A stretch of DNA of 64,000 nucleotides, taken from contig QXPY01000006.1 in assembly GCA_003583745.1 (NCBI GenBank), positions 229,309-293,308 of the forward strand, given 5' to 3'. The DNA comes from Rhodocyclales bacterium GT-UBC (GTDB lineage Bacteria > Pseudomonadota > Gammaproteobacteria > Burkholderiales > Rhodocyclaceae). The translations under genes were made by a program, and so were the position numbers. The notes under the pieces were generated by a model. It was not told the origin of the DNA. It saw only the letters and a program-made list of their open reading frames with translations, and searched no databases. Shown one piece after another: positions 14,820-60,608 of this stretch (position 1 is its first letter; each line of letters starts with the position of its first letter).

Positions 14820-14835
14820 TGCATTGCTTATGCCC
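14820..14835 (-). promoter_or_regulatory. Candidate sigma-54 promoter of the suyAB operon
   Basis: Read on the minus strand: GGGCATAAGCAATGCA, that is GG-N10-GC (GG at 14834-14833, GC at 14822-14821). It matches 4 of 6 bases of TGGCAC and 4 of 5 of TTGCW. Transcription would begin near 14809, about 75 bases before suyA. Two shared palindromes lie about 205-250 bases upstream. Confidence 0.55.
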
Positions 14836-14940
14836 GTTCCGCGAGATTGCGCCGGATCCGGAGCGACTGATATGCAAAGCGGCCGGCGGCTTCTTTTCTT
14901 ATAGCGATAAATTGGTTGGGGGCTGTGTACGGGAGGGCTA

Positions 14941-15030
14941 GATTGCAATCCGTGACTGCCTGACAGCAATCATGTACATCTCTCTCTCCATGCGTTCGGC
15001 CCGCCACGGTTTCGTGGCGGGCATTTTTTT
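14941..15030 (+). ncRNA. Candidate small RNA ending in a strong terminator
   Basis: No plausible gene lies between suyA and 15323, yet the plus strand carries a textbook terminator at 14999-15030. Just upstream, GATTGC (14941-14946) pairs with GCAATC (14966-14971) as a second stem. A short plus-strand transcript ending here is the simplest reading. The 5' end is not defined. Confidence 0.35.
14999..15030 (+). terminator. Rho-independent terminator in the suyA upstream region
   Basis: GCCCGCCACG (14999-15008) pairs perfectly with CGTGGCGGGC (15013-15022) around a four-base loop, followed by ATTTTTTT. The T-run exists only in the plus direction, and no coding gene runs into it. Confidence 0.85.
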
Positions 15031-15040
15031 GTCCACGAAG

Positions 15041-15087
15041 TGTTGCGCTGGCAGCATGCAGGATCGCCGGTTGCTGCCGGTGCAACA
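15041..15087. promoter_or_regulatory. Paired TGYTGC-N4-GCARCA palindromes (suyA / rhodanese-like gene)
   Basis: TGTTGC-GCTG-GCAGCA at 15041-15056 and TGCTGC-CGGT-GCAACA at 15072-15087. Both match the shared palindrome exactly, with starts 31 bases apart. They lie between two divergent candidate sigma-54 promoters (14820 minus, 15219 plus), which fits enhancer sites for a sigma-54 activator such as the SfnR-type protein at 59.5 kb. Confidence 0.65.
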
Positions 15088-15156
15088 GCGGGCCGATCAT
15101 GGTGGCTCTTGAGTGTGCTTACTGGATGCAAGTCTTGTTGAAAAATAATTTAAATA

Positions 15157-15169
15157 AATCAGTTGGTTG
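15157..15169 (+). promoter_or_regulatory. Possible IHF site
   Basis: AATCAGTTGGTTG fits the IHF consensus WATCAANNNNTTR with one mismatch. It lies in an AT-rich tract between the paired palindromes and the sigma-54 promoter at 15219, where DNA bending is expected. Confidence 0.35.
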
Positions 15170-15218
15170 AGTTGTTTATTTAATGTTATTTCGAGTTCGT
15201 AATCGTGCGCTGTGTTAT

Positions 15219-15234
15219 TGGCATGAATGCTGCC
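15219..15234 (+). promoter_or_regulatory. Candidate sigma-54 promoter of the rhodanese-like operon
   Basis: TGGCATGAATGCTGCC has GG (15220-15221), ten bases, GC (15232-15233). The -24 box matches 5 of 6 consensus bases; the -12 box is weaker (CTGCC). It is 89 bases before the start at 15323 and about 130 bases after the paired palindromes. Confidence 0.55.
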
Positions 15235-15322
15235 AATGGGGGTAAGTTGCTCCATTGAATGCCTGCCTGGCAGGTCTGGGGCGATCGATGCCAACCTTAC
15301 TCAGAGAAAGCGAATCACACCG

Positions 15323-15733
15323 ATGAAACTCAAGAACCTGTCTGCCGTCCTGTTGCTGGCCGTGTCTTCCACCCTGGCGTTTGCCCAGCAGACGACGCCC
15401 AAGTTGAGTCGCGCCCAGCTCGACAGCCTGTTTGCCAAGCCCGATCAACTGGTCGTCGTCGATGTGCGACGCCCCGACGAGCTGACCAAGATTGGCGGCT
15501 TCCCGGTCTATCTGAGCATCCAGGCCAAGGATCTGGAAAACAGCCTGGCCTACATCCCGAAGGACCGTCAGGTGGTCACCGTGTCGAATCATGCCGGCCG
15601 CGCCGTCAAGGCGGCCGACCTGCTGGTCAGCAAGGGCTTCAAGGTGGCCGGTGCGGTCGGTGTCCAGGACTATGAAGCCGAAGGCGGCACGTTGAGCAAG
15701 ATCGCGCCGCCGGCACCGAAGCCGGCCCAGTAA
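15323..15733 (+). CDS. Periplasmic rhodanese-like protein lacking the catalytic Cys
   Basis: A 136-residue secreted protein: signal peptide MKLKNLSAVLLLAVSSTLAFAQ, then a single rhodanese domain with LVVVDVRRPDELTKIGGFP and the active-site loop VTVSNHAGRAVKAADLL. In active rhodaneses this loop is C-X4-G-X-R-like, with Cys five residues before Arg; here that residue is Ser (about 88), so sulfur transfer is unlikely and a binding role is inferred. First gene after the sigma-54 promoter at 15219. Confidence 0.82.
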   Translation: MKLKNLSAVLLLAVSSTLAFAQQTTPKLSRAQLDSLFAKPDQLVVVDVRRPDELTKIGGFPVYLSIQAKDLENSLAYIPKDRQVVTVSNHAGRAVKAADLLVSKGFKVAGAVGVQDYEAEGGTLSKIAPPAPKPAQ

Positions 15734-15810: not shown

Positions 15811-16494
15811 ATGAAACTCAAGCTGACCTTGCTTGGCGCCTGTCTTGTCGCGCCGACCTTGCTTCTTGCCCAACAGGCCGCCGCCCCCGCCAAGCCGCTG
15901 CCGCCCCTGGGCTTCTTCGTCACCAGTGTCGGTCTCGGCAAGGGGGCCGACCTGGGCGGCCTGGCCGGAGCCGATGCACATTGCCAGGCGCTGGCCAGTG
16001 CGGCGGGCGCCGGGAGCCGGACCTGGCGCGCTTATCTCAGCACCCAGGCGGCCGATGGCAAGCCGGCGATCCATGCCCGCGACCGGATCGGAACCGGTCC
16101 CTGGCACAACGCCAAGGGCGCCGTGGTGGCGCGCGATCTCGAACATCTGCATGGCGATACGCTGGATGGTGCCCGCCTTGGCAGCAACCTGAGCCGGACC
16201 ACGGCCCTGAGCGAAAAGGGCGAGGCGGTGAAGGGGGCCGGCGACAAGCCGAACCAGCACGACATCCTGACCGGTTCGCAGCCCGATGGCCGCGCCTACG
16301 CCGATGCCGCCGACCACACCTGCAGCAACTACACCAGCAGCGCAGCCGAAGGCTCGGTCCAGGTCGGTCATTTCGACCGCACCGGTGGTGGCAATACGTC
16401 GTGGAATTCGGCGCATGGCAGCCGCGGCTGCAGCAACGAGAAGCTTGAGAGCAGCGGCGGCGCCGGCCTGCTTTATTGCTTTGCTGCCAACTAA
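15811..16494 (+). CDS. Secreted DUF1554/lectin-like protein
   Basis: Exported protein of 227 residues with signal peptide MKLKLTLLGACLVAPTLLLAQ. The mature part begins LGFFVTSVGLGKGADLGGLAGADAHCQALA and ends GCSNEKLESSGGAGLLYCFAAN. This pattern, with paired Cys and many Gly, Ser and Asn, belongs to a family often labelled DUF1554 or lectin-like (collagen NC10/endostatin fold). No catalytic motif is seen. It shares its MKLK start and AQQ signal junction with the gene before it. Function unknown. Confidence 0.7.
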   Translation: MKLKLTLLGACLVAPTLLLAQQAAAPAKPLPPLGFFVTSVGLGKGADLGGLAGADAHCQALASAAGAGSRTWRAYLSTQAADGKPAIHARDRIGTGPWHNAKGAVVARDLEHLHGDTLDGARLGSNLSRTTALSEKGEAVKGAGDKPNQHDILTGSQPDGRAYADAADHTCSNYTSSAAEGSVQVGHFDRTGGGNTSWNSAHGSRGCSNEKLESSGGAGLLYCFAAN

Positions 16495-16512
16495 CGCGAC
16501 GAGGAAATGACG

Positions 16513-17043
16513 ATGCAAGCAAAACTGTTTCTCCTGATGCTGCTGGCCGCATCCGGCAGCGCCATGGCGCAGACGGCGGCGCCGAATTCAGCTGCACCGG
16601 CGGCACGTCCGCCGGCCCAGCCGGCCGCCCGAGGACCGGCCCTGGACCTCGCCATCGAGGCGGCACGAATCGCGGTCGATACCTGCAAGGCACGAGACCA
16701 GAAAATCGGTGTCAGCGTGGTCGATTCGGCCGGCGTGCTGAAAACCCTGCTCGCCACCGATGGCGCTTCGTCGCGCGGCGTGTCGTCGAGCACGGCCAAG
16801 GCGGTGACGGCGCTGAGCTTCAAGGCGGCGACCAGCCAGCTGGCCGAGCAGATCAAGACGGACACGACACTGGCCGAGAAAATTTCGGCCAACACCGCCT
16901 ACAACGCCCGGGCCGGCGGCGTGCTGCTCAAGGTCGGCGACGAGATCATCGGTGCCATCGGGGTGGGCGGGGCGCGCGGCAGCGATGTCGACGAAGCCTG
17001 TGCCGTGGCCGGCATCCAGGCCATCCAGAGCCGGTTGAATTGA
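16513..17043 (+). CDS. Secreted HbpS/GlcG-like heme-binding family protein
   Basis: A GlcG/HbpS (DUF336) domain behind a signal peptide (KLFLLMLLAASGSAMAQ) and an Ala/Pro-rich linker. Typical parts are LDLAIEAARIAVDTCKARDQKIGVSVVD, SSSTAKAVTALSFKA and GEIIGAIGVGG-like GDEIIGAIGVGGARGSD. HbpS relatives bind heme or cobalamin; here the ligand is unknown. The ATG at 16513 lies seven bases after GAGGAA; another ATG two codons earlier is too close to that site. The next gene overlaps its stop. Confidence 0.8.
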   Translation: MQAKLFLLMLLAASGSAMAQTAAPNSAAPAARPPAQPAARGPALDLAIEAARIAVDTCKARDQKIGVSVVDSAGVLKTLLATDGASSRGVSSSTAKAVTALSFKAATSQLAEQIKTDTTLAEKISANTAYNARAGGVLLKVGDEIIGAIGVGGARGSDVDEACAVAGIQAIQSRLN

Positions 17044-19178
17044 GCGCATGGCTTGATGCCGGACGGGGCTGGCGCCTGCTGGCTGCCGGCCTGCTGTTCT
17101 GCCTGAACGGCCTGGCCGGCGCGGCAGCACTTTCCCCTCGTGCTTCAACCGAGCAGGTCGAGGCAGAATTGCTGGCCGCCTTTCCGACGGTGACGCCGGG
17201 GCAGGAAATCCTGCTCGGGGTGCGGCAAAAAATCATTCCGCACTGGCACACCTACTGGAAAAACCCCGGCGACTCGGGCGAGGCGACAAAGATCGACTGG
17301 CAGTTGCCGGAAGGAGTCACGGCCGGGGCGATCCAGTGGCCGGCACCGCGGCGTTTCACGCTCGGGCCGGTAACCAACTACGGTTACGCCGATGAAGTCA
17401 TGCTGCTGGTGCCGCTGCAGGTGGCGGCAACGGCGCAGCCCGGGCAGCGTCTGCCGATCCGGGCCAGCGTGGACTGGCTGGTGTGCGAGGAAACCTGCAT
17501 TCCGCAACGGGTCGAGCTGGGGTTGTCCTTGCCCGTCGTAGCGCCGGGGAGTGCGATCGGACCGGCCAATCCGCTGATTCAAGCAGCGCGCTTGGCACTG
17601 CCAACGAGCAGCCCATGGCCGCTTCGTCTTGATCGTGTCGGCGATGCGCTGCAACTGCGGATCAAGGCGCCGGAACTGGCCGCGCCTGCAGTTCGGGAGC
17701 TTTGGTTCTATCCCTCCGAATGGGGCAGGGTGGCGCATGACGCCGCGCAACCAGCCCGCTTCGCAGACGGCGAGCTCATCCTGTCGTTACAACCCGGTGA
17801 GGCGCCGTTGGTGGCCGGCGAGGCATTGGACGGCGTGCTGGTCATCACCGAGGAGCAGCCCGGTGGCACGACAAGGCGCAGCTTCGAGATGGCGCCGACG
17901 CTGGCCATAGCTTCGGCAGACGGCCATGGCCAGGAAACCGGAGCGTGGTCGGCGATGCTGCTTGCCCTGCTGGGCGGCATCGTCCTCAACCTGATGCCTT
18001 GCGTATTTCCCGTGTTGTCGATCAAAGCGCTGTCGCTGATTCGCCATGCCGGGCAGGCACCGGGCAAGCTCAGGCGGCAGGGGTTGGCCTATACGGCCGG
18101 TGTGCTGGTCAGTTTCGCTGCCCTCGGCGGCTTGCTGATCGGGATCAAGCTCGGTGGCGGCAGCATTGGCTGGGGATTCCAGTATCAATCGCCGGTCTTC
18201 GTCCTGCTGGTGGCCTACCTGATGTTTGCCGTCGGACTCAATCTTTCCGGGCTGTTTGTCGTCGGTGCCGGCGCGGTCGGTCTGGGGAGTAGCCTGGCCG
18301 CTCGCGAGGGGAGTCTGGGCAGTTTCTTTACCGGTGTGTTGGCGACCGTGGTGGCGACGCCATGTACGGCGCCATTCATGGGCGCCGCCGTCGGCTTTGC
18401 GCTCGGCCAGCCCACGCTGCAGTTGCTGGCCGTGTTCCTCAGCCTGGGGCTGGGGCTGGCCTTGCCGTATCTGCTCCTTTGCCTGTGGCCCGGCCTGCAG
18501 CGCCTGTTGCCGCGGCCCGGTGTATGGATGGAGCACCTCAAGCAGGGGCTGGCTTTCCCGATGTACGGGGCGGCGATCTGGCTGGTCTGGGTGCTGGCCC
18601 AACAGGCGGGAATCAATGCCGTCGCCGTGGCGCTTGGCGGCATGCTGGCGATTGCCTTTGCCGTCTGGCTGTTTGGCCTGACCCGGCAAGGGGGCCGACT
18701 GGCGCGACATGGCGGTGCGTGGTTCGCCTCGCTGGCCCTGGCCGGGGCCTTGTTGGGCGGCTATTTCGGCATCGAGGCCCGGTCGGCCGAAGTCGGCGCA
18801 TCCCGTTCAATCAGGCAGAGCTGGGAACCCTACAGCGCCAAAAGGCTGGCCGAGTTGCGGGCGGGCGGTCGGCCGGTGTTGATCAATCTGACTGCATCCT
18901 GGTGCATCAGCTGCCTGGTCAACGAGAAGGTGGCCTTGAGTTCGACGGCCGTGGGCGAGGCGCTTCGGGCCGGCGGCATTACCTACCTGAAGGGCGACTG
19001 GACCAATCAGGACCCGGAGATCGGGCGACTGCTGGCCGAGTTCGGGCGCAGCGGCGTCCCGCTCTATGTCTATTACCCCGCCGGCGCGAAGGCGGTACCG
19101 ATCGTCCTGCCGCAGATCCTGACGCCGGAAATCGTGCTCGCCGCCCTTGCCCCCGGCAATTCGACTTCGCTTCATTAA
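17040..19178 (+). CDS. ScsB/DsbD-type membrane protein-disulfide reductase
   Basis: Moves electrons from the cytoplasm to periplasmic thiols. About 712 residues: signal peptide, an N-terminal immunoglobulin-like DsbD/ScsB domain with Cys 149 and 153 (VCEETCIPQ), an eight-helix CcdA-like membrane domain with Cys 321 (LMPCVFPVLS) and 442 (TPCTAPFMG), and a C-terminal thioredoxin domain with C622-I-S-C625. The large N-terminal domain and length are closer to ScsB than classical DsbD. Start inferred as TTG at 17040, overlapping the previous stop (TTGA); no ATG fits. Its partner is probably the redoxin just downstream. Confidence 0.85.
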   Translation: MSAWLDAGRGWRLLAAGLLFCLNGLAGAAALSPRASTEQVEAELLAAFPTVTPGQEILLGVRQKIIPHWHTYWKNPGDSGEATKIDWQLPEGVTAGAIQWPAPRRFTLGPVTNYGYADEVMLLVPLQVAATAQPGQRLPIRASVDWLVCEETCIPQRVELGLSLPVVAPGSAIGPANPLIQAARLALPTSSPWPLRLDRVGDALQLRIKAPELAAPAVRELWFYPSEWGRVAHDAAQPARFADGELILSLQPGEAPLVAGEALDGVLVITEEQPGGTTRRSFEMAPTLAIASADGHGQETGAWSAMLLALLGGIVLNLMPCVFPVLSIKALSLIRHAGQAPGKLRRQGLAYTAGVLVSFAALGGLLIGIKLGGGSIGWGFQYQSPVFVLLVAYLMFAVGLNLSGLFVVGAGAVGLGSSLAAREGSLGSFFTGVLATVVATPCTAPFMGAAVGFALGQPTLQLLAVFLSLGLGLALPYLLLCLWPGLQRLLPRPGVWMEHLKQGLAFPMYGAAIWLVWVLAQQAGINAVAVALGGMLAIAFAVWLFGLTRQGGRLARHGGAWFASLALAGALLGGYFGIEARSAEVGASRSIRQSWEPYSAKRLAELRAGGRPVLINLTASWCISCLVNEKVALSSTAVGEALRAGGITYLKGDWTNQDPEIGRLLAEFGRSGVPLYVYYPAGAKAVPIVLPQILTPEIVLAALAPGNSTSLH

Positions 19179-19195: not shown

Positions 19196-19816
19196 ATGTT
19201 GTTACGCACGATCGCCCGGATCAGCCTGCTTGGGCTGTCCGCTTCACTGCTGCCTGTTTCCGCCCTGGCCGTGGCCAATATCGATCAGCCGGCACCGCCT
19301 TTTTCAGCCCAGAGCGCTGACGGCAATACCGTCAATCTGGCCGCCTATCGGGGCAAAACGGTGGTGCTGGAATGGACCAATCATGAATGCCCCTACGTCC
19401 GTAAGCATTACGAGAGCGGCAACATCCCGCAGTTGCAGAAGGAGGCTGCGGCGCGCGGCATCGTCTGGCTGCAGGTGATTTCATCGGCACCGGGCAAGCA
19501 GGGCCATGTCGACGGTGCGACGGCGCTCAAGGTCAATGCGACGCGCGATGCCCGACCGGCCGGCATCATCCTCGATCCGGAAGGCAAGATCGCCCGCCTG
19601 TACGGCGCCCAGACGACGCCCCACATCTTCATCATCAACCCGGCCGGTGAACTGGTTTACAAGGGCGGGATCGACAGCGTCGCAAGTAGCAAGAAGGAAG
19701 ACCTGGCCACTGCCGAAAACTACGTCCGGCTGGCCTTTGCCGACATTTCCGCGCAGCGTCGCATCGCCCAGGCCAGCACGCGTCCGTATGGCTGCACCAT
19801 CAAGTACGCCGACTGA
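19196..19816 (+). CDS. Periplasmic redoxin (AhpC/TSA-like)
   Basis: Thioredoxin-fold protein of 206 residues with signal peptide MLLRTIARISLLGLSASLLP. The key Cys is in WTNHECPYVRKHY, with single-Cys peroxiredoxin-like spacing, and a second Cys is near the end (RPYGCTIKY). The redoxin core includes TTPHIFIINPAGELVYKGGIDS. GAGGAG lies six bases before the ATG. Following the ScsB-type reductase, it is a likely acceptor of its electrons. Confidence 0.82.
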   Translation: MLLRTIARISLLGLSASLLPVSALAVANIDQPAPPFSAQSADGNTVNLAAYRGKTVVLEWTNHECPYVRKHYESGNIPQLQKEAAARGIVWLQVISSAPGKQGHVDGATALKVNATRDARPAGIILDPEGKIARLYGAQTTPHIFIINPAGELVYKGGIDSVASSKKEDLATAENYVRLAFADISAQRRIAQASTRPYGCTIKYAD

Positions 19817-19937: not shown

Positions 19938-20942
19938 ATGCAATTCCAGAAAACCCGCCGTGCCCTGATCGCACTCGCATTGGGTGCCGCCCTCGGCGGC
20001 CATGCCCTGGCCGATGTCTCCCTGCTCAACGTGTCCTACGATCCGACGCGCGAGCTGTATCAGGAATACAACGCAGCCTTCGCCAAGTACTGGAAGGGCA
20101 AGACCGGTGAAAGCATCTCCGTCAAGGCTTCGCATGGTGGTTCCGGCAAGCAGGCGCGTGCCGTGCTCGACGGTCTCGATGCCGACGTCGTCACCCTGGC
20201 CCTAGCCTACGATATCGATGAAATCGCCGAAGCCGGCCTGCTCAACAAGGATTGGCAGAAGAAGCTGCCGCTCAATGCTTCGCCCTATACCTCGACCATC
20301 GTGCTGCTCGTCCGCAAGGGCAACCCGAAAGGCATCAAGGACTGGAACGACCTGGTCAAGCCGGGTGTTGAAGTCATCACCCCGAATCCGAAGACCTCCG
20401 GTGGTGCCCGCTGGAACTACCTGGCCGCCTGGGGCTACGCCAAGCAATTGAAGGGCGGCTCCGATGCGACGGCCAAGGACTTCGTCAAGAAGCTCTACGG
20501 CAACGTCAAGGTGCTCGATTCCGGCGCCCGCGGCGCGACGACGACCTTCGTCGAACGCGGCATCGGCGACGTGCTGATCGCCTGGGAAAACGAGGCCTAC
20601 CTGTCGCTCAAGGAACTCGGTCCGGACAAGTTCGAGATCGTCACGCCTTCGGTGTCCATCCTGGCTGAACCGCCGGTCGCCGTGGTCGACAAGATCGTCG
20701 ACAAGAAGGGCACCCGCAAGGTTGCTACCGAGTACCTGAACTACCTGTACTCGCCGGAGGGCCAGGAAATCGCGGCCAAGAACTACTACCGTCCGACCGA
20801 TGCCAAGGTGGCTGCCAAGTACGCGAAGCAGTTCGCTCCGGTCAAGCTGTTCAAGATCAACGACGTGTTCGGCGGCTGGAGCAAGGCCCAGAAGACCCAC
20901 TTCGCCGACGGCGGCGTGTTCGACGAAATCGCCGTCAAATAA
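19938..20942 (+). CDS. sbp: Periplasmic sulfate-binding protein (first copy)
   Basis: Binds sulfate or thiosulfate for the CysTW importer. 334 residues with signal peptide cleaved near ALADVSLLN. The family signatures are [49 protein letters not shown] and [11 protein letters not shown]. It has its own promoter box and its own terminator at 20980-21016, so it can be expressed alone. The second copy at 21130 is clearly diverged. Confidence 0.95.
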
Positions 20943-20979
20943 GCGCTCCTGGCTGGCGCGACTCTCCCGCGCGAAGCTG

Positions 20980-21016
20980 CCCCGCATGGCCCGTAAGGCA
21001 TGCGGGGTTTTTCTTT
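20980..21016 (+). terminator. Rho-independent terminator after sbp
   Basis: CCCCGCATG (20980-20988) pairs with CATGCGGGG (20999-21007), ten-base loop, then TTTTTCTTT. Confidence 0.85.
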
Positions 21017-21044
21017 GTCGGTCGGGCTGCTTTCGCTGCCGATG

Positions 21045-21072
21045 GGCATATCCAAATAGGAATAAATTCGTT
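21045..21072 (+). promoter_or_regulatory. CysB-like box before the second sulfate-binding protein gene
   Basis: GGCATATCCAAATAGGAATA followed by AATTCGTT, aligned base for base with the box at 19848-19875. It starts 85 bases before the ATG at 21130. Confidence 0.55.
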
Positions 21073-21129
21073 ATTGCGCTCGGGGGGCTTCTCTAAGCTT
21101 GCGCCATGATCGAAACGACTGGAGTCATG

Positions 21130-22137
21130 ATGAAACGAAAACCCCGTGCCCTCCGCCAACTGGCGGTTTCGGCTGCCCTGTTCGGCTTCGGCCTGAGTGC
21201 AATCGCCCAGGTGACGCTGCTCAACGTCTCGTATGACGTGACCCGCGAACTCTACAAGGACATCAACCCGGCCTTCGTCAGCGCCTGGAAAAAGAAAACC
21301 GGCGAGACGGTCGGCATCAACCAGTCGCATGGCGGTTCCAGCAAGCAAGCCGGTTCGGTGATCGGCGGCCTGGAGGCCGACGTGGTGACGATGAACCAGT
21401 CCACCGACATCGACGTCATCGCCGATAGCGGCCTGATCGCCGCCGACTGGAACAAGCGTTTCCCGAACGGTGCCGCGCCGTACACCTCGACCAGCGTTTT
21501 CCTGGTTCGCAAGGGCAATCCGAAGAACATCCGCGACTGGGACGATCTGGTCAAGCCGGGGACGACGGTGATCGTGCCCAATCCGAAAACCTCGGGCAAC
21601 GGCCGCTATACCTACCTGGCGGCCTGGGGGCAGGTGATCAGCAAGGGCGGCAATGCGACACAGGCCCGCGACTTCGTCAGCCGCCTGTTCCGCAATGTGC
21701 CGGTGCTCGATGGCGGCGGCCGCGGTGCGACGACGACCTTCACCCAGCGCAATATCGGCGACGTCCTGGTGACGTTTGAAAACGAGGCCTACCTGATCGA
21801 CAAGGAAGTCGGCGGTGACCAGTTCGATGTCGTCTATCCCTCGGTCAGCATCGAGGCGGCGGCGCCGGTTGCGTTGGTCGACAAGGTGGTGGACAAGAAG
21901 GGCAGCCGCAAGCAGGCGCAGGCCTATCTCGACTTCCTCTATTCGCCGGAAGGGCAGGAAATCATCGCCCGCCATTACCTGCGGCCGCGCAACGAGGCCG
22001 TGCTCAAGAAGCATGCGGCACAGTTCAAGCCGCTCAAGCTGTTCACCCCGGAAGCCATCTTCGGCAGCCTGGCCAAGGCCCAGAAAGAGCATTTCGCCGA
22101 TGGCGGCATCTATGACCAGATCGTGGTGAACAAATAA
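21130..22137 (+). CDS. Periplasmic sulfate-binding protein (second copy)
   Basis: A second Sbp/CysP family protein, about 335 residues, with signal peptide ending near SAIAQ and VTLLNVSYDVTRELYKDIN, NQSHGGSSKQAGSV, PNPKTSGNGRYTYLAAWG. The ATG at 21130 has GGAG five bases upstream; ATGs at 21106 and 21127 are in frame but badly spaced. The stop overlaps the cysT ATG (TAATG), so this copy is the one coupled to the permeases. Confidence 0.93.
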   Translation: MKRKPRALRQLAVSAALFGFGLSAIAQVTLLNVSYDVTRELYKDINPAFVSAWKKKTGETVGINQSHGGSSKQAGSVIGGLEADVVTMNQSTDIDVIADSGLIAADWNKRFPNGAAPYTSTSVFLVRKGNPKNIRDWDDLVKPGTTVIVPNPKTSGNGRYTYLAAWGQVISKGGNATQARDFVSRLFRNVPVLDGGGRGATTTFTQRNIGDVLVTFENEAYLIDKEVGGDQFDVVYPSVSIEAAAPVALVDKVVDKKGSRKQAQAYLDFLYSPEGQEIIARHYLRPRNEAVLKKHAAQFKPLKLFTPEAIFGSLAKAQKEHFADGGIYDQIVVNK

Positions 22138-23948: not shown

Positions 23949-23964
23949 TGCTGCGTACGCAGCA
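23949..23964. promoter_or_regulatory. TGYTGC-N4-GCARCA palindrome before the first TonB receptor
   Basis: TGCTGC-GTAC-GCAGCA, an exact match that is also a perfect 16-base palindrome. A poorer copy lies at 23980-23995 (right arm GAAGCA), 31 bases on. The sigma-54 promoter at 24126 is about 165 bases downstream. The rest of the 330-base gap is AT-rich with nothing else recognised. Confidence 0.62.
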
Positions 23965-24125: not shown

Positions 24126-24141
24126 GGGCACGGTGGTTGCA
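24126..24141 (+). promoter_or_regulatory. Strong candidate sigma-54 promoter of the first TonB receptor operon
   Basis: GGGCACGGTGGTTGCA: 5 of 6 bases of TGGCAC, ten bases between GG and GC, and a perfect TTGCA. Transcription would begin near 24152, 36 bases before the ATG. Confidence 0.72.
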
Positions 24142-27951: not shown

Positions 27952-27980
27952 ATATCCGATTCTTTCAACCAAGGACACCC

Positions 27981-28871: not shown

Positions 28872-28936
28872 GCCGTAATTTTTCCATCGGCCGGCCGTGC
28901 ATCGTCATGCCGGCCAACATCTCCCCTGGAGCAAGC

Positions 28937-37286: not shown

Positions 37287-37287
37287 C

Positions 37288-47788: not shown

Positions 47789-47802
47789 GGGGGCGGCGGC
47801 GC

Positions 47803-50901: not shown

Positions 50902-50931
50902 GGGGTTTGGGGTTTCGCCTTGAGGGCGACG

Positions 50932-51419: not shown

Positions 51420-51487
51420 CGCCCGCCCACCAGGCGGAACCCCCTGTCCGGCAAAGGAAAGCATCAAGGTGTCGTGGCAAGCAGGCA

Positions 51488-54400: not shown

Positions 54401-54589
54401 GGTGACGACCTCCGGGCTGGCCCCCGGATAGAGCGCCGTCACCTGGATGGTCGGGTACTCGACTTCCGGCAGGGCCGAAACGCCGAGCATGCGGTAGCCA
54501 ACCAGGCCGGCGAGCAGGATGGCGACCATCAGCAGCGAGGTCGCGACCGGCCGCAGGATGTAGAGGCGGGAAGGATTCATGCCGGCCAT
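51488..54589 (-). CDS. mdtB: RND efflux pump inner-membrane subunit, MdtB-like
   Basis: 1033 residues, same RND fold: [53 protein letters not shown] and [18 protein letters not shown]. Order mdtA-mdtB-mdtC is as in E. coli. Start at 54589 (MAGMNPSR); an ATG three codons on is equally possible. Two bases separate it from mdtA. Confidence 0.93.
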
Positions 54590-54591
54590 GT

Positions 54592-56193
54592 TCAGTTGCG
54601 CGGCGCCGGGCGTGCCTCGCCGGCTTCGCGTTCCTGCGCTTCACGACGCTGCCGCCAGCGCTCGCGGCGGGCGATGGCTTCCGGGTCCTGGCTGTTAGCC
54701 TCGTCCCGGTTCCAGCGGCGTTCGCCGCGCGACGCATTCGCCTCGCCTTCGGCCGGTCGGCCTGCAGGGGCGGAGCCGGCCGGCTTGTCGCCGTTATTTC
54801 CCTTGTCGGCCGCAGCGGTTTTGCCCGGCGCGGCTGGCTTGGCGCTATCGGCAGCGGCATCCTGGCGCGGCGGCCGGCCTTCTTCGCCTTCGGCACGACG
54901 TTTGCGGCGTTCGCCCTTGGCCGGGTCACCAGCTTCGCCACTCCGGGCCTCGTCGGCATTGCGCGACTGGCCGTCGATACTCAGGACATCGACCTTGCCA
55001 CCGGGGCGCAGGCGGTCGGCACCGTCGAGCACGACCTGGTCGCCCGGCTCCAGTCCTTTTTCGACAATCACGGTTTCACCGTTCACCGGACCAAGTTGCA
55101 CCGGCCGCGGTGCCACCGTCTGGTCTTCCTTGTTGATGCGGTAGACAAAGGCCCCCTGGGCATTGCGCTGCACGGCGGCGAGCGGCAGCAGCACGGCGTT
55201 CTGGCGGGTTTCGACCTTGAGCCGGGCGTTGATGAACTGGTTCGGGAACAGGCTGTTGTCCTTGTTGGCGAATTCGGCCTTGAGCTTGACGGTGCCGGTG
55301 GCAACGTCGATCTGGTTGTCGATGCTGCTCAGCTTGCCCTCGGTCAGCAAGGTTTTGCCGTCGCGGCTCCAGGCTTCGACGACCAGGCTGGCACCGCTTT
55401 GCACCCGGTTGACGATGTCGCCGATGCTTTCCGATGGAATGGCGAAGACAACGTTGATCGGCTGCGTCTGGGTAATCACCACCAGGCCGGTGGTGTCGGA
55501 CGAACGCACCATGTTGCCGACATCGACCAGGCGCAGGCCGAGGCGGCCGGGGGCCGGCGCGGTGACGCGGGTAAAGGCCAGTTGCAGGCGGGCGTTGTCT
55601 TCCAGCGCCTTGTCGGCTTCGACGGTGCCCTTGTACTGGCGAACCAGGGCTTCCTGCGTATCGACCTGCTGCTTGGCAATGGAATCCTTGGCGAGCAGGG
55701 CGCGATAGCGTTCAAGGTCGACCTGGGCGGCGCTGAGCAGCGCCTGGTCCTTGAGCAGCTGGCCATGCGTCTGGTCGAGTGCGATCTGGAAGGGGCGAGG
55801 ATCGATCTCGGCGAGCACGTCGCCGGTCTTCACCTGCTGGCCGTCGCGGAAGTTGATCTTGATGAGTTGCCCATCGACACGCGGCTTGACGGTGGCCGTG
55901 TTGTAAGCGGTGACGGTGCCCAGCGCGCTGACCACGATGTCGAGATTACCCTGCTTGACCTGGCTGGCCTTGACCGGCTGGGCGCGTCCGCCGCCCTGAC
56001 GGTCGCGGCCGTTGCGGCCCGGCGGCCCGCCGTTCGGCCCTGCGGCTTCGGCCTTGCTGTCGCCGCCGGCTCCTTGCGAATAAGCCGAATAGGCCCACCA
56101 GGCGCCGCCGGAGAGGGCGATGAGTGCGCCGCCAAGGGCGATGAGCGTGGTCCGACGACCAAAACGCGTGCTGAGTTTTTCCCTGAGTGCCAT
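54592..56193 (-). CDS. mdtA: RND efflux membrane-fusion protein, MdtA-like, with long charged tail
   Basis: 533 residues: an N-terminal membrane anchor ([21 protein letters not shown]), the lipoyl/hairpin core ([40 protein letters not shown]) and beta-barrel domains. About 120 residues after LSIDGQSRN are low-complexity, rich in Ala, Glu, Arg, Gly and Lys ([33 protein letters not shown]). Usual MdtA proteins are about 400-415 residues, so this tail is additional. Confidence 0.9.
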
Positions 56194-56327
56194 GCAGGCT
56201 GATTCCGTATCGCTATGGGGTAATGAATGTTTGGTGCATAAATGCAGGCGGGCGTGTTTTCAACGCCCGCCCGAATCGTCGCGTCAAGCGGCGATTGTCG
56301 CAAGAATCCAGTTGTAACAAGCAGTTT

Positions 56328-56756
56328 CTAGATGAACTGCTCTCCACCGACCAGGCCGACCTTGGTCAAACCCTTGCGCTGAACCGCCGCCATCACAGCC
56401 GCAACATGGCGGTAAGGCACCTTGCGGTCCGGCCGGACATGCAGCTCCGGCGTCACTTCCTGGGCGGCCGCGGCGCCCAGCTTGCTTTCCAGCAGCGCGG
56501 TGTCGCCGACGACCTCGCCGTTCCAGCGGATGGTACCGCCCGCGTCGATATCGACCCGGACGATTTCCGGTGGCGTGCTGGGCGGCGGCGGGTTGCCCAC
56601 TGGCATGTTGAGATTGACCGAGTGCAGCTGGATCGGGATGGTGATGATCAGCATGATCAGCAGCACCAGCATCACGTCGATCAGCGGCGTGGTATTGATT
56701 TCGGACATGACTTCGGGATCACCCGAGGCGCTGCCCGAACCGATGTTCATTCCCAT
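56328..56756 (-). CDS. exbD: ExbD-type TonB energising protein, second copy
   Basis: 142 residues with one membrane helix: MSEINTTPLIDVMLVLLIMLIITIP carries the proton-relay Asp. The periplasmic part holds ELHVRPDRKVPYRHVAAVMAAVQRKGLTKVGLVGG. It is 28 bases after another exbD. Two different exbD genes are common where one TonB system serves many receptors. Confidence 0.93.
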   Translation of the reverse strand: MGMNIGSGSASGDPEVMSEINTTPLIDVMLVLLIMLIITIPIQLHSVNLNMPVGNPPPPSTPPEIVRVDIDAGGTIRWNGEVVGDTALLESKLGAAAAQEVTPELHVRPDRKVPYRHVAAVMAAVQRKGLTKVGLVGGEQFI

Positions 56757-56784
56757 GACGGTAAATTCCTGTACTGGCCCGCCA

Positions 56785-57207
56785 TCAGCGGGGCGGGGGT
56801 TCGGTGATGAAGCCGAGCTTGACGATGCCGGCGCGCTGGGCGGCGAGCACCACCTTGCCGACGTACTCGTAGGGCGCGTTGCTGTCGCCGCGGATCTGGA
56901 CTTCCGGCTGCGGCTCGAGAATGGCGATCTCCTTGAGCTGGCTGACCAGGGCCTCGCTACCCGGGACACGTTTCTCGTTCCAGTAAACATCGCCCTCGCG
57001 GGACACCGAGAGGTTGATGTTTTCCGGCTTGGTCAGCCGCGGCTGGTTGTGTTCCTTCGGTAGATCGACCGGCACTGTCTGGGTCACGACCGGGATGGTG
57101 ATCAGGAAAATGATCAGCAGCACCAGCATGACATCGACCAGCGGCGTCGTATTGATTGCCGAGACGACCTCGTCTTCATCTTCCGCGGCGGCGATATGCA
57201 TTCCCAT
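56785..57207 (-). CDS. exbD: ExbD-type TonB energising protein, first copy
   Basis: 140 residues, with VVSAINTTPLVDVMLVLLIIFLITIPVV (relay Asp) and VQIRGDSNAPYEYVGKVVLAAQRAGIVKLGFITEP. Transcribed with exbB, 18 bases upstream. Differs clearly from the next copy, including a longer insert (LPKEHNQPRLTKPENINL). Confidence 0.93.
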   Translation of the reverse strand: MGMHIAAAEDEDEVVSAINTTPLVDVMLVLLIIFLITIPVVTQTVPVDLPKEHNQPRLTKPENINLSVSREGDVYWNEKRVPGSEALVSQLKEIAILEPQPEVQIRGDSNAPYEYVGKVVLAAQRAGIVKLGFITEPPPR

Positions 57208-57225
57208 GATCGACCGTCTCCGCGC

Positions 57226-58032
57226 TTAAACCGAGATGGCCCGGATGTGTTGCACGACCTTGGGCGACTTGTCGGTGGTGCGGGCGGCAGCAGCACCGAG
57301 CAGGACGGCATGGAGTTCGGCACCGAAGGTACGGACGCTTTCCAGGGCGGCCTTGTTGCGGCGAACCAGCCAGTTGTAACCGAGCACGGCCGGTACGGCG
57401 ACGGCCAGGCCGATGGCGGTCATGATCAGCGATTCGCCGACCGGGCCGGCCACCTTGTCGATCGATGCCTGGCCGGCAATGCCGATTGCGGTCAGCGCGT
57501 GGTAAATCCCCCAGACGGTGCCGAACAGCCCGACGAACGGGGCGGTCGAGCCGACCGTGGCGAGGAAGGCGAGGCCGTCCTGCAGGCGGCTCTGGACGTT
57601 TTCGATCGAGCGATGGATGGACAGTTGCACCCAGTCGTTGAGATCGATGTAGCCGAGCAGGCCACGGTGCTTGCCGGTGGCTTCGGCACCGGACTGGGCG
57701 ATGTAGTGATAGGCGCTGGCGGTGTCGAGCGAGGCGATGGCCTGATCGACTTCACCGGCTTCCCAGAAGGTTTCGTTGGCTTTCTTGCCTTGCTGGCTTA
57801 GCTTGTGCTGCTCGTAGAGCTTGGTGAAGATGATCAGCCAGCTGCCGATCGACATGATCACCAGGATGCCCAGCGTACCCTTGGCGACGAAGTCGCCGCC
57901 TTTCCACAGTGCGTCGAGGCCGTAGGGATTGCTGACCACTTCAGTGGCTGGCGCAAGGTCGGCGGCGGAGGCGACGGCGCTGGCCAGCAGCAGGGCGGCG
58001 GCGAGCAGATGATTCAGATTGAGACGGGACAT
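57226..58032 (-). CDS. exbB: ExbB-type TonB energising protein (MotA/TolQ/ExbB)
   Basis: 268 residues: a cleavable-looking signal (LLAAALLLASAVASA), then three membrane helices with GTLGILVIMSIGSWLIIF, AFLATVGSTAPFVGLFGTVWGIYHAL (the channel-motif helix) and VGESLIMTAIGLAVAVPAVLGYNWLVRR. Works with ExbD and TonB to power outer-membrane receptors. Confidence 0.95.
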   Translation of the reverse strand: MSRLNLNHLLAAALLLASAVASAADLAPATEVVSNPYGLDALWKGGDFVAKGTLGILVIMSIGSWLIIFTKLYEQHKLSQQGKKANETFWEAGEVDQAIASLDTASAYHYIAQSGAEATGKHRGLLGYIDLNDWVQLSIHRSIENVQSRLQDGLAFLATVGSTAPFVGLFGTVWGIYHALTAIGIAGQASIDKVAGPVGESLIMTAIGLAVAVPAVLGYNWLVRRNKAALESVRTFGAELHAVLLGAAAARTTDKSPKVVQHIRAISV

Positions 58033-58074
58033 GCGAATTTCTCCTGTTGGATTGATCTGGTAAAAACTGTTGTT

Positions 58075-58707
58075 TTAGCCGCCGTGGCGGAACGAGAAGG
58101 GCACCCGGACCCGGGCTTCATGGCCCTGGCCGTTGCAGCGCAACTGGGCGACGGCGGCGGTTGCCGCGGCGTTGAAGACACTGTTGGTCGATTGGGCAAC
58201 GGTGACGTTCTTGACTTCGCCATTGACGCCGACCGTGAATTCGATGACCACCTCGCCCGACAGGCCGAGTCGTTCCGCCTGGCGCGGGAAGGGCACCTGG
58301 CTGCGGACATCGACGTGATTCGGGCAAGCCACCGCGATATTGACTGCCGGCGGTGCAGCCGGGGCAGCGGGTGCGGCCGGCGCCACCGGCGTCGGGGCGG
58401 GCGGTTGGCTCGACGTGGTGACGGTCGGCTGAACCGGTACATTGACCGGGACTTCGACCGGCGGCGCATAGGCCGGTGGTGGCGGGCTCTTGGTCCGGGC
58501 GACCACGACCTTGGGCGGCGGTGGTGGTGGCGGCAAGGTCTTGACCTCCTCGACGATGCTGACGTTGAGCGGGGCTTTCAGGACCTCGATGACCTTGCGG
58601 CCCAGGCCGTTGGCCAGTGCGTAGACCAGCACGACGTGAAATCCCAGCACTGCGACCAGTCCGACCAGATGCTTGCGCGGATTGCGCTGCTGTTCGGCGT
58701 AACTCAT
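58075..58707 (-). CDS. tonB: TonB energy-transducing protein
   Basis: 210 residues: N-terminal membrane anchor (HLVGLVAVLGFHVVLVYALANGL), a Pro-rich spacer (LPPPPPPPKVV, PVEVPVNVPVQP, PAAPAAPAAPPA) and a C-terminal TonB domain (VDVRSQVPFPRQAERLGLSGEVVIEFTVGVNGEVKNVTVAQS). A Cys pair flanks the domain. It heads tonB-exbB-exbD-exbD and lies behind a candidate sigma-54 promoter and two palindromes. Confidence 0.95.
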   Translation of the reverse strand: MSYAEQQRNPRKHLVGLVAVLGFHVVLVYALANGLGRKVIEVLKAPLNVSIVEEVKTLPPPPPPPKVVVARTKSPPPPAYAPPVEVPVNVPVQPTVTTSSQPPAPTPVAPAAPAAPAAPPAVNIAVACPNHVDVRSQVPFPRQAERLGLSGEVVIEFTVGVNGEVKNVTVAQSTNSVFNAAATAAVAQLRCNGQGHEARVRVPFSFRHGG

Positions 58708-58796
58708 TTTTCCGGCTTCCTTGGCAACAGGCGGAACACGTCCTGCCTGATTAAATTGATCTGTGGGGTGGGCTTGCTCATCCGGGCAAGCAATGC

Positions 58797-58812
58797 TGCA
58801 CAGCACAAGCCA
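58797..58812 (-). promoter_or_regulatory. Candidate sigma-54 promoter of the tonB operon
   Basis: On the minus strand TGGCTTGTGCTGTGCA: GG, ten bases, GC. 4 of 6 and 4 of 5 consensus bases, the weakest of the seven. It is 90 bases before the tonB ATG and about 115-165 bases from the paired palindromes. Confidence 0.42.
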
Positions 58813-58927
58813 TGCCTGTTGCCCGAAAAAGAAACGATCGAGATCTAAGCAACTAAGAAATAAGCGCTTTTTAAGCAACCGGGCGAAAAGATGACCGCCT
58901 GGCCGGTTGGGTGAACGGGCCGTTCGC

Positions 58928-58974
58928 TGTTGCTGCAGAAGCAATCCGGCGCTAGGGGTGTTGCTGGCGAAACA
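58928..58974. promoter_or_regulatory. Paired TGTTGC-N4 palindromes before tonB
   Basis: TGTTGC-TGCA-GAAGCA (58928-58943) and TGTTGC-TGGC-GAAACA (58959-58974), each 11 of 12 arm bases. Starts are 31 bases apart, the same spacing as at 15041/15072. They lie in the 465-base gap between tonB and the molbindin gene; no other gene is seen there. Confidence 0.6.
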
Positions 58975-59085
58975 GTTGGCAGAAAAGGCGTCGACAAGCC
59001 ATGTATTTCGTCTTTTCAAATGAATTTTTTCTGAGAAAGCTTATGGGAAATGGATCGTTGTTCCACCTTGCCCGGCTGACTAATC

Positions 59086-59099
59086 TTGACCTGCGTCAA
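59086..59099. promoter_or_regulatory. FNR/Dnr-type palindrome before the molbindin gene
   Basis: TTGAC-CTGC-GTCAA is a perfect CRP/FNR-superfamily palindrome (FixK/Dnr-like form), 74 bases before the ATG. It suggests oxygen or nitric-oxide dependent control of the molbindin and perhaps the sfnR-like gene. Confidence 0.55.
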
Positions 59100-59172
59100 A
59101 AACGTGACCGGCCTGTTCAGCGGTCGCCTCGGAGCAAAAAATACTTCTTCAACAGGGTTAAGGAATTTCAGC

Positions 59173-59388
59173 ATGACGATTCAATCCATCAACGCCCGCA
59201 ACCAGTTCAAGGGTTCGGTCACCAATATCATCCATGGGCCGGTAGTCTCGGAAATCGAGGTCGATACGCCGTTCGGCATCGTGACGTCGGTCATCACCAC
59301 GCGCTCGGTCAAGGATCTCGATCTGCAGATCGGCACCGAAGTCCTGGCGCTGGTGAAATCGACCGAAGTGTCGATCGCCAAGCTCTAG
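59173..59388 (+). CDS. Molbindin (Mop/TOBE domain protein)
   Basis: 71 residues forming a single TOBE/Mop domain (INARNQFKGSVTNIIHGPVVSEIEVDTPFGIVTSVIT, GTEVLALVKSTEVSIA). Such proteins form hexamers that hold molybdate or related oxyanions such as tungstate. Placed 113 bases before the SfnR-type regulator. It may store molybdate or sense oxyanions linked to sulfate limitation; that link is inference. Confidence 0.9.
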   Translation: MTIQSINARNQFKGSVTNIIHGPVVSEIEVDTPFGIVTSVITTRSVKDLDLQIGTEVLALVKSTEVSIAKL

Positions 59389-59501
59389 GCTTCAGGTCTG
59401 GCGGGCTGGAGGGGGTATCCAGTCCGCAAAGGGCCGTCCAGAATCAGGTTGGTGGCAACAGCCCGTCAAATGGCACCAACCGTCCATGTTTGTCAGATGC
59501 C

Positions 59502-60608
59502 ATGCACAAAATTCTCACGTTTCCCGATTCGCAGGCACAAATGCTGTCAATCCGGGCCAAGGCGCTGGTCTTTCACGACCCGGCCTCGCTCGAAATCCTC
59601 AATACGACAGAATTGCTGGCGCCTAGCGATGCCACTGTCCTGATCATCGGCGACACCGGTACCGGCAAGGAATTGATCGCCCGCCACGTGCATGAACAGA
59701 GCGGCCGGACCGGTCCCTTCGTCGCCGTCAATTGCGGTGCATTCAGCGAAAACCTGATCGAGGCCGAGCTGTTCGGCCACGAATCCGGGGCCTTTACCGG
59801 GGCACAGGGAGCCCGGGCCGGCTGGTTCGAGGCAGCACAGAACGGCACCTTGTTTCTCGACGAGATCGGCGACCTGCCGCTCGGCATGCAGGTCAAGCTG
59901 CTGCGGGTGCTGCAGGAACGCCAGGTCGTCCGGCTCGGTTCGCGACGGCCGATTGACATCGATGTCCGGCTGGTCGCTGCCACCAACGTCGACCTGGTGG
60001 CGGCGGTCGAGGCCGGGCATTTCCGGGCCGACCTCTACTACCGGCTGAACATTGCGCCGATCAAGCTGCCACCGCTGCGCGAGCGGCCGGGCGACATCCT
60101 GCCGCTGGCCCGCCATTTCGTCAGCACCTACCGGGCCCGGCTCAACCTGGGAGTGATCGAGTTTTCCAGCAATGCCCGCCAGTTGCTGCTCGGCTATTCG
60201 TGGCCTGGCAATATCCGGGAACTGGAAAACGTCATTCACTACGCCCTGATCGTCTGTCGCGACGGCGTGATTCGTTCGGCCGACCTGCGTCTGCACGAAC
60301 GGGTCCCGATGCGCCCCGGCGCGACATGCGAAACAGTTAATCCGGCCAACGAGGATGACGAGTGCCGTTTGTCCAAGGCTTTCATCAACCTGTTCCAGGA
60401 AGGCGGCCCGGCGATCTACGAGCAGGTCGAGGAGATGCTGGTCTCCCTGGCCTTCGAGCACTGCAACAACAACCAGGTGCAGACCGCCCGACTGTTGGGC
60501 ATTTCGCGCAACATCCTGCGCGCCCAGTTGAAGCGCTTCGGCCTGTTGTCGTCGCGGGACAGCGTGGCGGGCGATGGAGAGGGCGTGGAAAGCGAAGCCG
60601 TCGTCTGA
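59502..60608 (+). CDS. sfnR: SfnR-type sigma-54-dependent activator
   Basis: 368 residues. The AAA+ domain begins almost at once: Walker A GDTGTGKE (50-57), the sigma-54 contact loop GAFTGA (96-101), Walker B GTLFLDE (115-121), arginine finger region FRADLYYRLN. A Fis-type helix-turn-helix is at the C-terminus (NNNQVQTARLLGISRNILRAQLKRFGLL). No receiver, GAF or PAS domain precedes the AAA+ part, which is how SfnR of Pseudomonas is built; SfnR acts on sulfone and sulfonate genes under sulfur starvation. It is the only sigma-54 activator in the window and so the first candidate for the TGYTGC-N4-GCARCA sites. Confidence 0.85.
   Translation: MHKILTFPDSQAQMLSIRAKALVFHDPASLEILNTTELLAPSDATVLIIGDTGTGKELIARHVHEQSGRTGPFVAVNCGAFSENLIEAELFGHESGAFTGAQGARAGWFEAAQNGTLFLDEIGDLPLGMQVKLLRVLQERQVVRLGSRRPIDIDVRLVAATNVDLVAAVEAGHFRADLYYRLNIAPIKLPPLRERPGDILPLARHFVSTYRARLNLGVIEFSSNARQLLLGYSWPGNIRELENVIHYALIVCRDGVIRSADLRLHERVPMRPGATCETVNPANEDDECRLSKAFINLFQEGGPAIYEQVEEMLVSLAFEHCNNNQVQTARLLGISRNILRAQLKRFGLLSSRDSVAGDGEGVESEAVV

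What the first reader, a model, noticed from the sequence alone, without database searches (positions are those of the whole stretch)
14820..60608. A shared palindrome plus sigma-54 promoters define a likely SfnR-type organosulfur regulon
Seen directly: seven intergenic GG-N10-GC promoters (14820-, 15219+, 24126+, 32359-, 32797+, 35531+, 58797-) and five upstream clusters of TGYTGC-N4-GCARCA. All the clusters are in gene-free gaps, about 100-260 bases from a promoter. Known: sigma-54 promoters need an AAA+ activator bound at such distances; SfnR in Pseudomonas drives sulfone/sulfonate genes. Inference: the SfnR-type protein at 59502-60608 binds this palindrome and co-activates sulfolactate breakdown, a periplasmic redox operon, two TonB receptors, tonB-exbBD and several genes of unknown function. 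These unknown genes would then be new members of a sulfur-scavenging system.
Basis: partly seen in the sequence, partly recalled or inferred. Interest (0 to 1): 0.93.

Follow-up and report, generated by a model that had tools for sequence, protein, structure and literature searches.

The report
Sulfur-sparing envelope regulon under one activator
A bacterium and nine relatives in its genus share a set of cell-envelope genes, many coding for proteins almost free of sulfur amino acids, whose control regions carry one common DNA palindrome and which are likely switched on together by a single activator protein when sulfur runs short.

Summary
Five exact and four one-mismatch palindromes (TGYTGC-N4-GCARCA) lie in five gene-free gaps, each with a predicted sigma-54 promoter; the 8 exact copies elsewhere in the genome lie in ORFs. 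Ten of 76 genus genomes (this one included) encode the activator (59502-60608). At their loci 30 of 32 exact palindromes are intergenic, often in tandem 20-21 or 30-32 bp apart. All 42 palindrome gaps hold a sigma-54-like site (20 of 191 other gaps). In genus genomes without the activator, 40 of 40 palindromes checked lie in open frames. In Pseudomonas loci with a 57-60% identical activator, 19 of 23 palindrome gaps precede msuE. A new, independent line: the proteins are stripped of sulfur. Fifteen of 29 are Met-free (12 of 251 controls), and Sbp1 has no internal Met against 5-8 in housekeeping copies. So a sulfur-limitation regulon is well supported, but with new content: TonB-ExbBD-RND, TonB receptors, a second sulfate transporter and unknown periplasmic proteins instead of MsuE/C/D. 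The sulfolactate operon is not supported as a member (weak promoter; absent from the other 21 genus genomes tested). Binding, sigma-54 use and sulfur response are inferred.

The parts
59502..60608 (+). SfnR-type sigma-54 activator (AAA+ with GAFTGA loop, Fis-type HTH, no N-terminal sensor domain); predicted to bind the palindrome
   Evidence: Pfam; alignment; orthologues in 10 of 76 genus genomes, own included; 57-60% to the activator of Pseudomonas msu loci
59173..59388 (+). Mop/TOBE molybdate-binding protein, upstream neighbour of the activator also in G435, G437, G439, G456, G459 (5 of the 8 relatives whose activator is at least 80% identical)
   Evidence: TIGR00638 60.5 bits, over cut-off; synteny
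15041..15056 (.). palindrome, exact
15072..15087 (.). palindrome, exact, 31 bp from the previous one
23949..23964 (.). palindrome, exact, between cysW and TBDT1; a palindrome follows cysW also in G439, G437, G459, G002, G435, G454
32518..32533 (.). palindrome, exact
32549..32564 (.). degenerate palindrome (2 mismatches), 31 bp from 32518
32636..32651 (.). palindrome, exact
35376..35391 (.). palindrome, 1 mismatch
35396..35411 (.). palindrome, 1 mismatch, 20 bp from the previous one
58928..58943 (.). palindrome, 1 mismatch
58959..58974 (.). palindrome, 1 mismatch, 31 bp from the previous one
15219..15234 (+). predicted sigma-54 promoter of the rhodanese-like operon
   Evidence: 11.2 bits, not above shuffles on its own; sites of 12.9-16.2 bits before the same gene in G002, G007, G454, G459, G437
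24126..24141 (+). predicted sigma-54 promoter of TBDT1-SGL-DLH-cytochrome c'
   Evidence: 15.6 bits; counterparts in G439, G437, G459
32359..32374 (-). predicted sigma-54 promoter of TBDT2
   Evidence: 11.0 bits; G459 counterpart 14.0 bits
32797..32812 (+). predicted sigma-54 promoter of the DUF6152 operon
   Evidence: 12.7 bits
35531..35546 (+). predicted sigma-54 promoter of the DUF6644 operon
   Evidence: 16.6 bits; no mismatch to TGGCAC-N5-TTGCW
58802..58817 (-). predicted sigma-54 promoter of tonB-exbBD-RND (register corrected by 5 bp from the finding)
   Evidence: 11.2 bits at 58817-; aligns with G435 and G456
14820..14835 (-). claimed sigma-54 promoter of the sulfolactate operon: weak, not supported
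   Evidence: 10.4 bits; SuyB-like gene absent from the other 21 of 22 genus genomes tested
15323..15733 (+). periplasmic rhodanese-like protein (weak Pfam match) lacking the catalytic Cys; no Cys or Met after residue 25
15811..16494 (+). weak DUF1554 match; Met-free
16507..17043 (+). HbpS-like protein
17190..19178 (+). DsbD-like thiol transporter
19196..19816 (+). redoxin (AhpC-TSA/Redoxin domain), Met-free
19938..23857 (+). second sulfate transporter: Sbp1, Sbp2, CysT, CysW
   Evidence: NCBIfam over cut-off; housekeeping copy on contig C12
24188..26929 (+). TonB-dependent receptor TBDT1
27019..29416 (+). SMP-30/SGL protein, dienelactone-hydrolase-family protein, cytochrome c'; Met-free after residue 25
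   Evidence: DLH in 8 of 76 genus genomes, all with the activator
29542..32322 (-). TonB-dependent receptor TBDT2
32924..35285 (+). DUF6152 protein and two unknown proteins (33486, 34332), Met-free after residue 25
35660..37731 (+). two DUF6644 proteins and two cytochrome c'-like proteins (36702 below cut-off)
46352..58707 (-). TonB-ExbB-ExbD-ExbD2 and MFP-RND-RND-TolC, divergent from Mop-activator
   Evidence: order kept in G435, G437, G439, G456, G459 and in G422 (same family, other genus)

Best explanation
The gene block at 15.3-58.7 kb is likely a sulfur-limitation regulon in which the SfnR-type protein encoded at 59502-60608 would bind the palindromes present in five promoter gaps and activate the predicted sigma-54 promoters about 140 bp downstream. 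Shown by sequence: the palindromes, their frequent tandem spacing of two or three helical turns, their coupling to sigma-54-like sites, their co-occurrence with the activator across the genus, their presence before msuE in Pseudomonas loci with a related activator, and the sulfur-poor make-up of many encoded proteins. Inferred: the activator binds tandem sites as adjacent dimers on one face of the helix and loops to sigma-54 polymerase; its own level, not a ligand, is the switch, because it has no sensor domain and no strong sigma-54 site faces its gene in the window. Inferred function: TonB receptors powered by the co-regulated TonB-ExbBD bring an organosulfur compound into the periplasm; periplasmic enzymes (lactonase-like, DLH-like, thiol-redox and haem proteins) free sulfate or sulfite; the dedicated Sbp-CysTW takes up sulfate; and the RND pump may expel the remainder. 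The substrate is unknown.
For: Activator in 10 of 76 genus genomes, own included. In 11 stretches from those 10 genomes, exact palindromes are intergenic 30 of 32 (153 kb of 824 kb is intergenic; binomial 4e-20) and one-mismatch ones 33 of 57; reversed-pattern control in the same stretches 0 exact and 2 one-mismatch intergenic; three control stretches of 100 kb 0 exact and 1 one-mismatch intergenic. One of the 11 stretches (G437 2.32-2.35 Mb) was fetched because it holds the DLH gene and an exact palindrome. Genus genomes without the activator: 40 of 40 exact palindromes checked lie in open frames (37 called coding; 3 called intergenic but in open frames of 513-641 codons). Sigma-54: 42 of 42 palindrome gaps reach 11 bits against 20 of 191 others; for gaps of 150-1200 bp 42 of 42 against 19 of 161; 31 of 42 gaps beat their own shuffles at p 0.04 or less (50 shuffles each). 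Spacing: 21 of 24 neighbouring pairs within 250 bp are 20-21 or 30-32 bp apart. DLH gene in 8 of 76 genus genomes, all 8 among the 10 with the activator (p 2e-9). In G437, 170-190 kb from the activator, palindromes again lie before the DUF6152, TBDT1-SGL-DLH and rhodanese-like/DUF6644 operons. Pseudomonas: palindrome gaps in 20 of 24 loci; 20 of 23 such gaps reach 11 bits against 15 of 124 others; 19 of 23 precede msuE and 2 more an msuC-like gene (MsuE over its cut-off). Sulfur sparing: 15 of 29 window regulon proteins Met-free against 12 of 251 controls (p 3e-10); Sbp1 without Cys or Met after residue 25 in 9 of 9, housekeeping copies 5-8 Met in six of six.
Against: No binding, rpoN or expression data. 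The sigma-54 matrix is from memory, and the 11-bit line was chosen after seeing the scores. Genome-wide exact counts hardly differ with the activator (mean 11.3, n = 10) or without it (8.8, n = 12). RND pumps, CysT, CysW and two of the three TonB barrels are not sulfur-poor against paralogues; secreted regulon proteins do not differ significantly from other secreted proteins of the same stretches by a crude operon rule (p 0.11). In 32 Burkholderiales loci (activators 57-65% identical) palindromes are not enriched between genes (7 of 77; 12% of the DNA is intergenic), nor clearly in 19 methanotroph-type loci (5 of 15; 26%). DLH is missing in G007 and G454.
Confidence: 0.8

Rival explanations
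1. The palindrome is bound by another sigma-54 activator of the cell, for example a NifA-type protein whose TGT-N10-ACA site (recalled) overlaps this consensus, and the SfnR-type gene is only a neighbour.
For: The genome has 23 sigma-54-activator domain matches; TGT-N10-ACA fits those palindromes that begin TGT and end ACA.
Against: Palindromes were intergenic near this activator and none of 40 checked in genomes without it was outside an open frame; they lie before msuE in Pseudomonas loci with a related activator. In 67 pattern-selected sites the third base is C in 54% of half-sites, so TGT/ACA is not kept.
Confidence: 0.08
2. The regulon serves another need (metal or haem uptake, solvent or aromatic efflux), and the sulfate transporter and low Met content are incidental.
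For: TonB receptors, RND efflux, HbpS-like and cytochrome c' proteins are typical of such systems; no sulfur poverty in RND, CysT or CysW against paralogues; secreted-only comparison mixed.
Against: A Met-free Sbp with CysTW lies in the palindrome-led run of genes in G000, G437, G439, G459 and next to a palindrome gap in G002, G435, G454; Met-free proteins are about 10 times more frequent than in controls; the activator is of the SfnR type.
Confidence: 0.12
3. Sulfolactate breakdown is a real member, co-activated from the same palindrome pair through 14820-.
For: The pair lies in the divergent gap between suy and the rhodanese-like gene; the best NCBIfam hit of 8546-9580 is L-sulfolactate dehydrogenase, below its cut-off; the operon's proteins are also rather low in Cys and Met.
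Against: Weakest promoter; SuyB-like gene in 1 of 22 genus genomes; relatives without it keep palindromes before the rhodanese-like gene.
Confidence: 0.25

Closest known systems
SfnR and the msu/sfn regulon of Pseudomonas (dimethyl sulfone and methanesulfonate use)
   Same: Activator type (57-60% identity, no sensor domain), palindrome pattern, sigma-54-like site downstream, sulfur theme; [quoted passage not shown]
   Different: Target set: no MsuE or MsuC relative and only one 37% relative of the alkanesulfonate monooxygenase (in G437) in the twelve stretches tested. Instead TonB-ExbBD-RND, TonB receptors, Sbp-CysTW and unknown proteins; tandem sites 20-21 or 30-32 bp apart, against 15 bp in many Pseudomonas gaps.
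Sulfate-starvation proteins with low sulfur content (elemental sparing; recalled)
   Same: Sulfur-acquisition proteins poor in Cys and Met
   Different: Here the sparing marks many members of one predicted sigma-54 regulon of envelope proteins, including ones of unknown function
MdtABC-type RND export operons (recalled)
   Same: MFP-RND-RND-TolC order
   Different: In one block with TonB-ExbB-ExbD-ExbD2 and divergent from the activator

Membership tests
SfnR-type sigma-54 activators | AAA+ domain with GAFTGA loop and Fis-type HTH | tested here: met
SfnR-type sigma-54 activators | no N-terminal sensor domain | tested here: met
   AAA+ match starts at residue 24, no other domain before it
SfnR-type sigma-54 activators | close relatives include the activator of Pseudomonas msu loci | tested here: met
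   57-60% identity, L173-L176 and L178-L197; a Thauera relative is named SfnR (P0104)
SfnR-type sigma-54 activators | same operator as the Pseudomonas protein | tested here: inconclusive
   Same palindrome before msuE in 19 of 23 Pseudomonas palindrome gaps, but the published SfnR papers were not held and Burkholderiales loci show no enrichment
Pseudomonas SfnR regulon | controls msu/sfn flavin monooxygenases | tested here: not met
   (loci only, whole genomes not searched): so the regulon is not filed as the Pseudomonas SfnR regulon
Pseudomonas SfnR regulon | CysB control and induction by sulfate starvation | not testable with these tools
   needs expression data
sulfolactate pathway (SuyAB with sulfolactate dehydrogenases; layout recalled) | curated family cut-offs for the enzymes | tested here: not met
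   L-sulfolactate dehydrogenase model 210.8 of 500 bits; SuyA/B-like proteins match only galactarate dehydratase below cut-off

The most novel reading that the evidence does not exclude
A whole, previously undescribed organosulfur-foraging apparatus: TonB-driven import of an unknown sulfur compound, periplasmic desulfuration by Met-free enzymes of unknown kind (DUF6152, DUF6644 and the 33486/34332 families, SGL, DLH), uptake of the freed sulfate by a dedicated Sbp-CysTW with a Met-free binding protein, and RND expulsion of the leftover, all under one SfnR-type activator that has been rewired from flavin monooxygenases to the cell envelope.
Probability: 0.4. Interest if true: 0.8.

Novelty: new variant of a known kind. 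Interest (0 to 1): 0.66.

Why it matters
If true, it gives a coherent, testable role to a dozen protein families without function, shows how a sigma-54 regulator keeps its operator while its targets are exchanged between genera, and shows sulfur sparing used as an independent mark of which genes belong to a sulfur regulon. Operator pattern plus Met-free content could be used to find such genes in other genomes.

Tried and rejected
TGGCAC-N5-TTGCW with two mismatches gives chance numbers in the window (36 against 36.5 expected), so promoters were judged by gap and with a matrix. Gene calling with the window-trained model fails in G059, G039 and G067 (few genes called), so those were left out of the counts, as was G093 (one coding one-mismatch hit). 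The related family genome G422 is in the gap and spacing counts, not in the 30 of 32. The 29 regulon proteins are my choice of blocks (15323-37731 and 46352-58707); adding four neighbours of the earlier set of 33 (37755, 38966, 42701, 44924) would add one Met-free protein. Structure prediction of the unknown protein 34332-35285 (mean pLDDT 71.6) found no PDB match at E 0.001 or better; the best are weak lipocalin- and avidin-like barrels: no function drawn. The crude operon-wise comparison of secreted proteins was mixed (p 9e-5 against control stretches, 0.11 against other secreted proteins of the same stretches). Sigma-54 autoregulation of the activator was considered: in the window gap the best site towards Mop-activator has 4.7 bits. 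Paper searches for SfnR with inverted repeat and with Betaproteobacteria listed nothing, and the three SfnR papers asked for are not held, so I cannot say whether the operator has been published.


Full report
What is there. The window is the end of contig C5 of a 4.68-Mb genome. Between 15.3 and 58.7 kb lie a rhodanese-like/DsbD/redoxin operon running into a sulfate transporter (Sbp1, Sbp2, CysT, CysW), two TonB receptors with SGL, DLH and cytochrome c' genes, DUF6152 and DUF6644 operons, and a TonB-ExbB-ExbD-ExbD2-MFP-RND-RND-TolC block that is divergent from Mop and the SfnR-type activator.

The palindrome. TGYTGC-N4-GCARCA has 5 exact and 5 one-mismatch matches in the window against 1.15 expected. 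All exact ones and four of the others are intergenic. Outside the window the genome has 8 more exact matches, all in ORFs. The motif is thus a local operator, and a genome count would have hidden it.

Comparison with relatives. The activator is found in 10 of 76 genus genomes, own included, and, at E 1e-105 or better, in 31 of 399 genomes drawn from the order. In 11 stretches from those ten genomes, 30 of 32 exact and 33 of 57 one-mismatch palindromes are intergenic, with 0 exact and 2 one-mismatch intergenic hits for the reversed pattern; three control stretches of 100 kb gave 0 exact and 1 one-mismatch intergenic. I checked 40 of the 52 exact palindromes of six genus genomes without the activator (all 35 of G342, G434, G436 and G433, and 5 of 17 of G146 and G029): 37 are called coding, and 3 are called intergenic but lie in open frames of 513-641 codons; none has a one-mismatch partner 20-32 bp away. 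Palindromes recur near the same genes: Mop-activator/tonB, rhodanese-like, cysW/TBDT1-SGL-DLH, DUF6152/TBDT2. In G437 several of these operons lie 170-190 kb from the activator and still carry the sites; that stretch was fetched because it holds DLH and an exact palindrome. The DLH gene is in 8 of 76 genus genomes, all within the 10; G007 and G454 lack it.

Architecture. Of 24 neighbouring palindrome pairs less than 250 bp apart, 21 are 20-21 or 30-32 bp apart, that is two or three helical turns. Every one of 42 palindrome gaps (11 genomes, G422 included) has a sigma-54-like site of 11 bits or more towards a flanking gene, against 20 of 191 other gaps; at 12 bits it is 33 of 42 against 15 of 191; 31 of 42 beat their own shuffles at p 0.04 or less. 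For gaps of 150-1200 bp it is 42 of 42 against 19 of 161. The 11-bit line was chosen after seeing the scores, and the matrix is from memory. The distance from palindrome to -24 is 62-370 bp, median 138, n = 50. In the tonB gap, palindromes (0.76, 0.79) and promoter core (0.80, first register) are more conserved over six genomes than the spacer between the palindromes (0.47) or the rest (0.57), and the alignment moves the promoter register to 58802-58817.

Link to SfnR. Pseudomonas activators are 57-60% identical. In 20 of 24 Pseudomonas loci (L173-L176, L178-L197) a palindrome of the same pattern lies between genes, and 20 of 23 such gaps carry a sigma-54-like site. Of these 23 gaps 19 precede a gene 63-100% identical to an MsuE that passes its curated cut-off, and 2 more an msuC-like gene. 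The alkanesulfonate monooxygenases of these loci also pass their cut-off; the gene that I call msuC matches DszC and SfnB models below cut-off, so that name is mine. [quoted passage not shown] aeruginosa study reports SfnR1 and MsuCDE proteins raised in sulfur starvation (PMC12581299, passages seen). In 32 Burkholderiales loci with 57-65% relatives the palindrome is not enriched (7 of 77 intergenic), nor clearly in 19 methanotroph-type loci (5 of 15), so operator and activator have drifted there or the targets lie elsewhere. No MsuE or MsuC relative, and only one 37% relative of the monooxygenase (in G437), is in the twelve stretches tested: the operator is kept and the targets differ.

An independent test of the sulfur claim. 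If these genes serve sulfur starvation, their products should be cheap in sulfur. Of 29 regulon proteins of 120 aa or more in the window, 15 have no Met after residue 25, against 12 of 251 control proteins (p 3e-10); the median of Cys plus Met is 0.88% for 33 genes against 2.87% for 102 controls. Over relatives, the rhodanese-like protein (10 of 10), Sbp1 (9 of 9) and DUF6152 (5 of 5) have neither Cys nor Met after residue 25; DLH and cytochrome c' (8 of 8 each) have no Met and at most one and two Cys. Six housekeeping Sbp copies have 5-8 Met in the aligned part. Against: the RND pumps rank 9 and 13 of 17, TonB barrels 2, 7 and 15 of 26, and CysT/CysW do not differ from the housekeeping copies; the secreted-only comparison is mixed. 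Relatives are not independent samples.

The sulfolactate operon. The SuyB-like gene is in 1 of 22 genus genomes, its promoter is the weakest of the seven, and its enzymes fall below curated cut-offs. It may have joined the regulon in this genome, since it shares the gap with a palindrome pair and its proteins are also rather sulfur-poor, but conservation gives no support.

Mechanism. Most likely the activator, lacking a sensor and not facing a strong sigma-54 site of its own, is made under sulfur limitation by another route (CysB in Pseudomonas, from a cited title seen; not tested here), binds the palindromes and activates sigma-54 polymerase. The apparatus would then bring an organosulfur compound through TonB receptors, free its sulfur in the periplasm and take it up through the dedicated transporter. 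Binding, sigma-54 use, induction and substrate are inferred.

Verdict. The regulon is real by comparative evidence and is a new variant of a known kind; the unknown genes are strong candidates for sulfur scavenging.

Noticed in passing
window 15323-15733: Rhodanese-like protein whose active-site loop reads VSNHAGRA (VSNRAHRA in G435 and G007), without the catalytic Cys, in the five sequences printed; 10 of 10 orthologues have no Cys after residue 25.
   Followed up: partly
window 59173-59388: A Mop/TOBE molybdate-binding protein precedes the activator; in G435 a palindrome (G435:C1:756743) precedes a [2Fe-2S]/molybdopterin hydroxylase pair with XdhC- and MocA-like genes (the last two judged by eye).
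   Followed up: partly
L059 12578-18512 and the like in G002, G454: Palindromes with two divergent strong sigma-54-like sites lie between an ABC transporter operon and PSD1/PSCyt2 + DUF1501 genes with cytochrome c and redoxin genes further on: further candidate members absent from the window.
   Followed up: partly
L175, L176, L179 and others: In many Pseudomonas loci the two palindromes before msuE are only 15 bp apart and overlap, unlike the 20-32 bp spacing here.
   Followed up: no
window 60-2620: metY-metX pair near the regulon; next to the activator region also in G437.
   Followed up: no
window 37755-40486: DUF1501 and DUF1800 proteins next to the regulon, with 9 and 7 Met and no palindrome.
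   Followed up: partly
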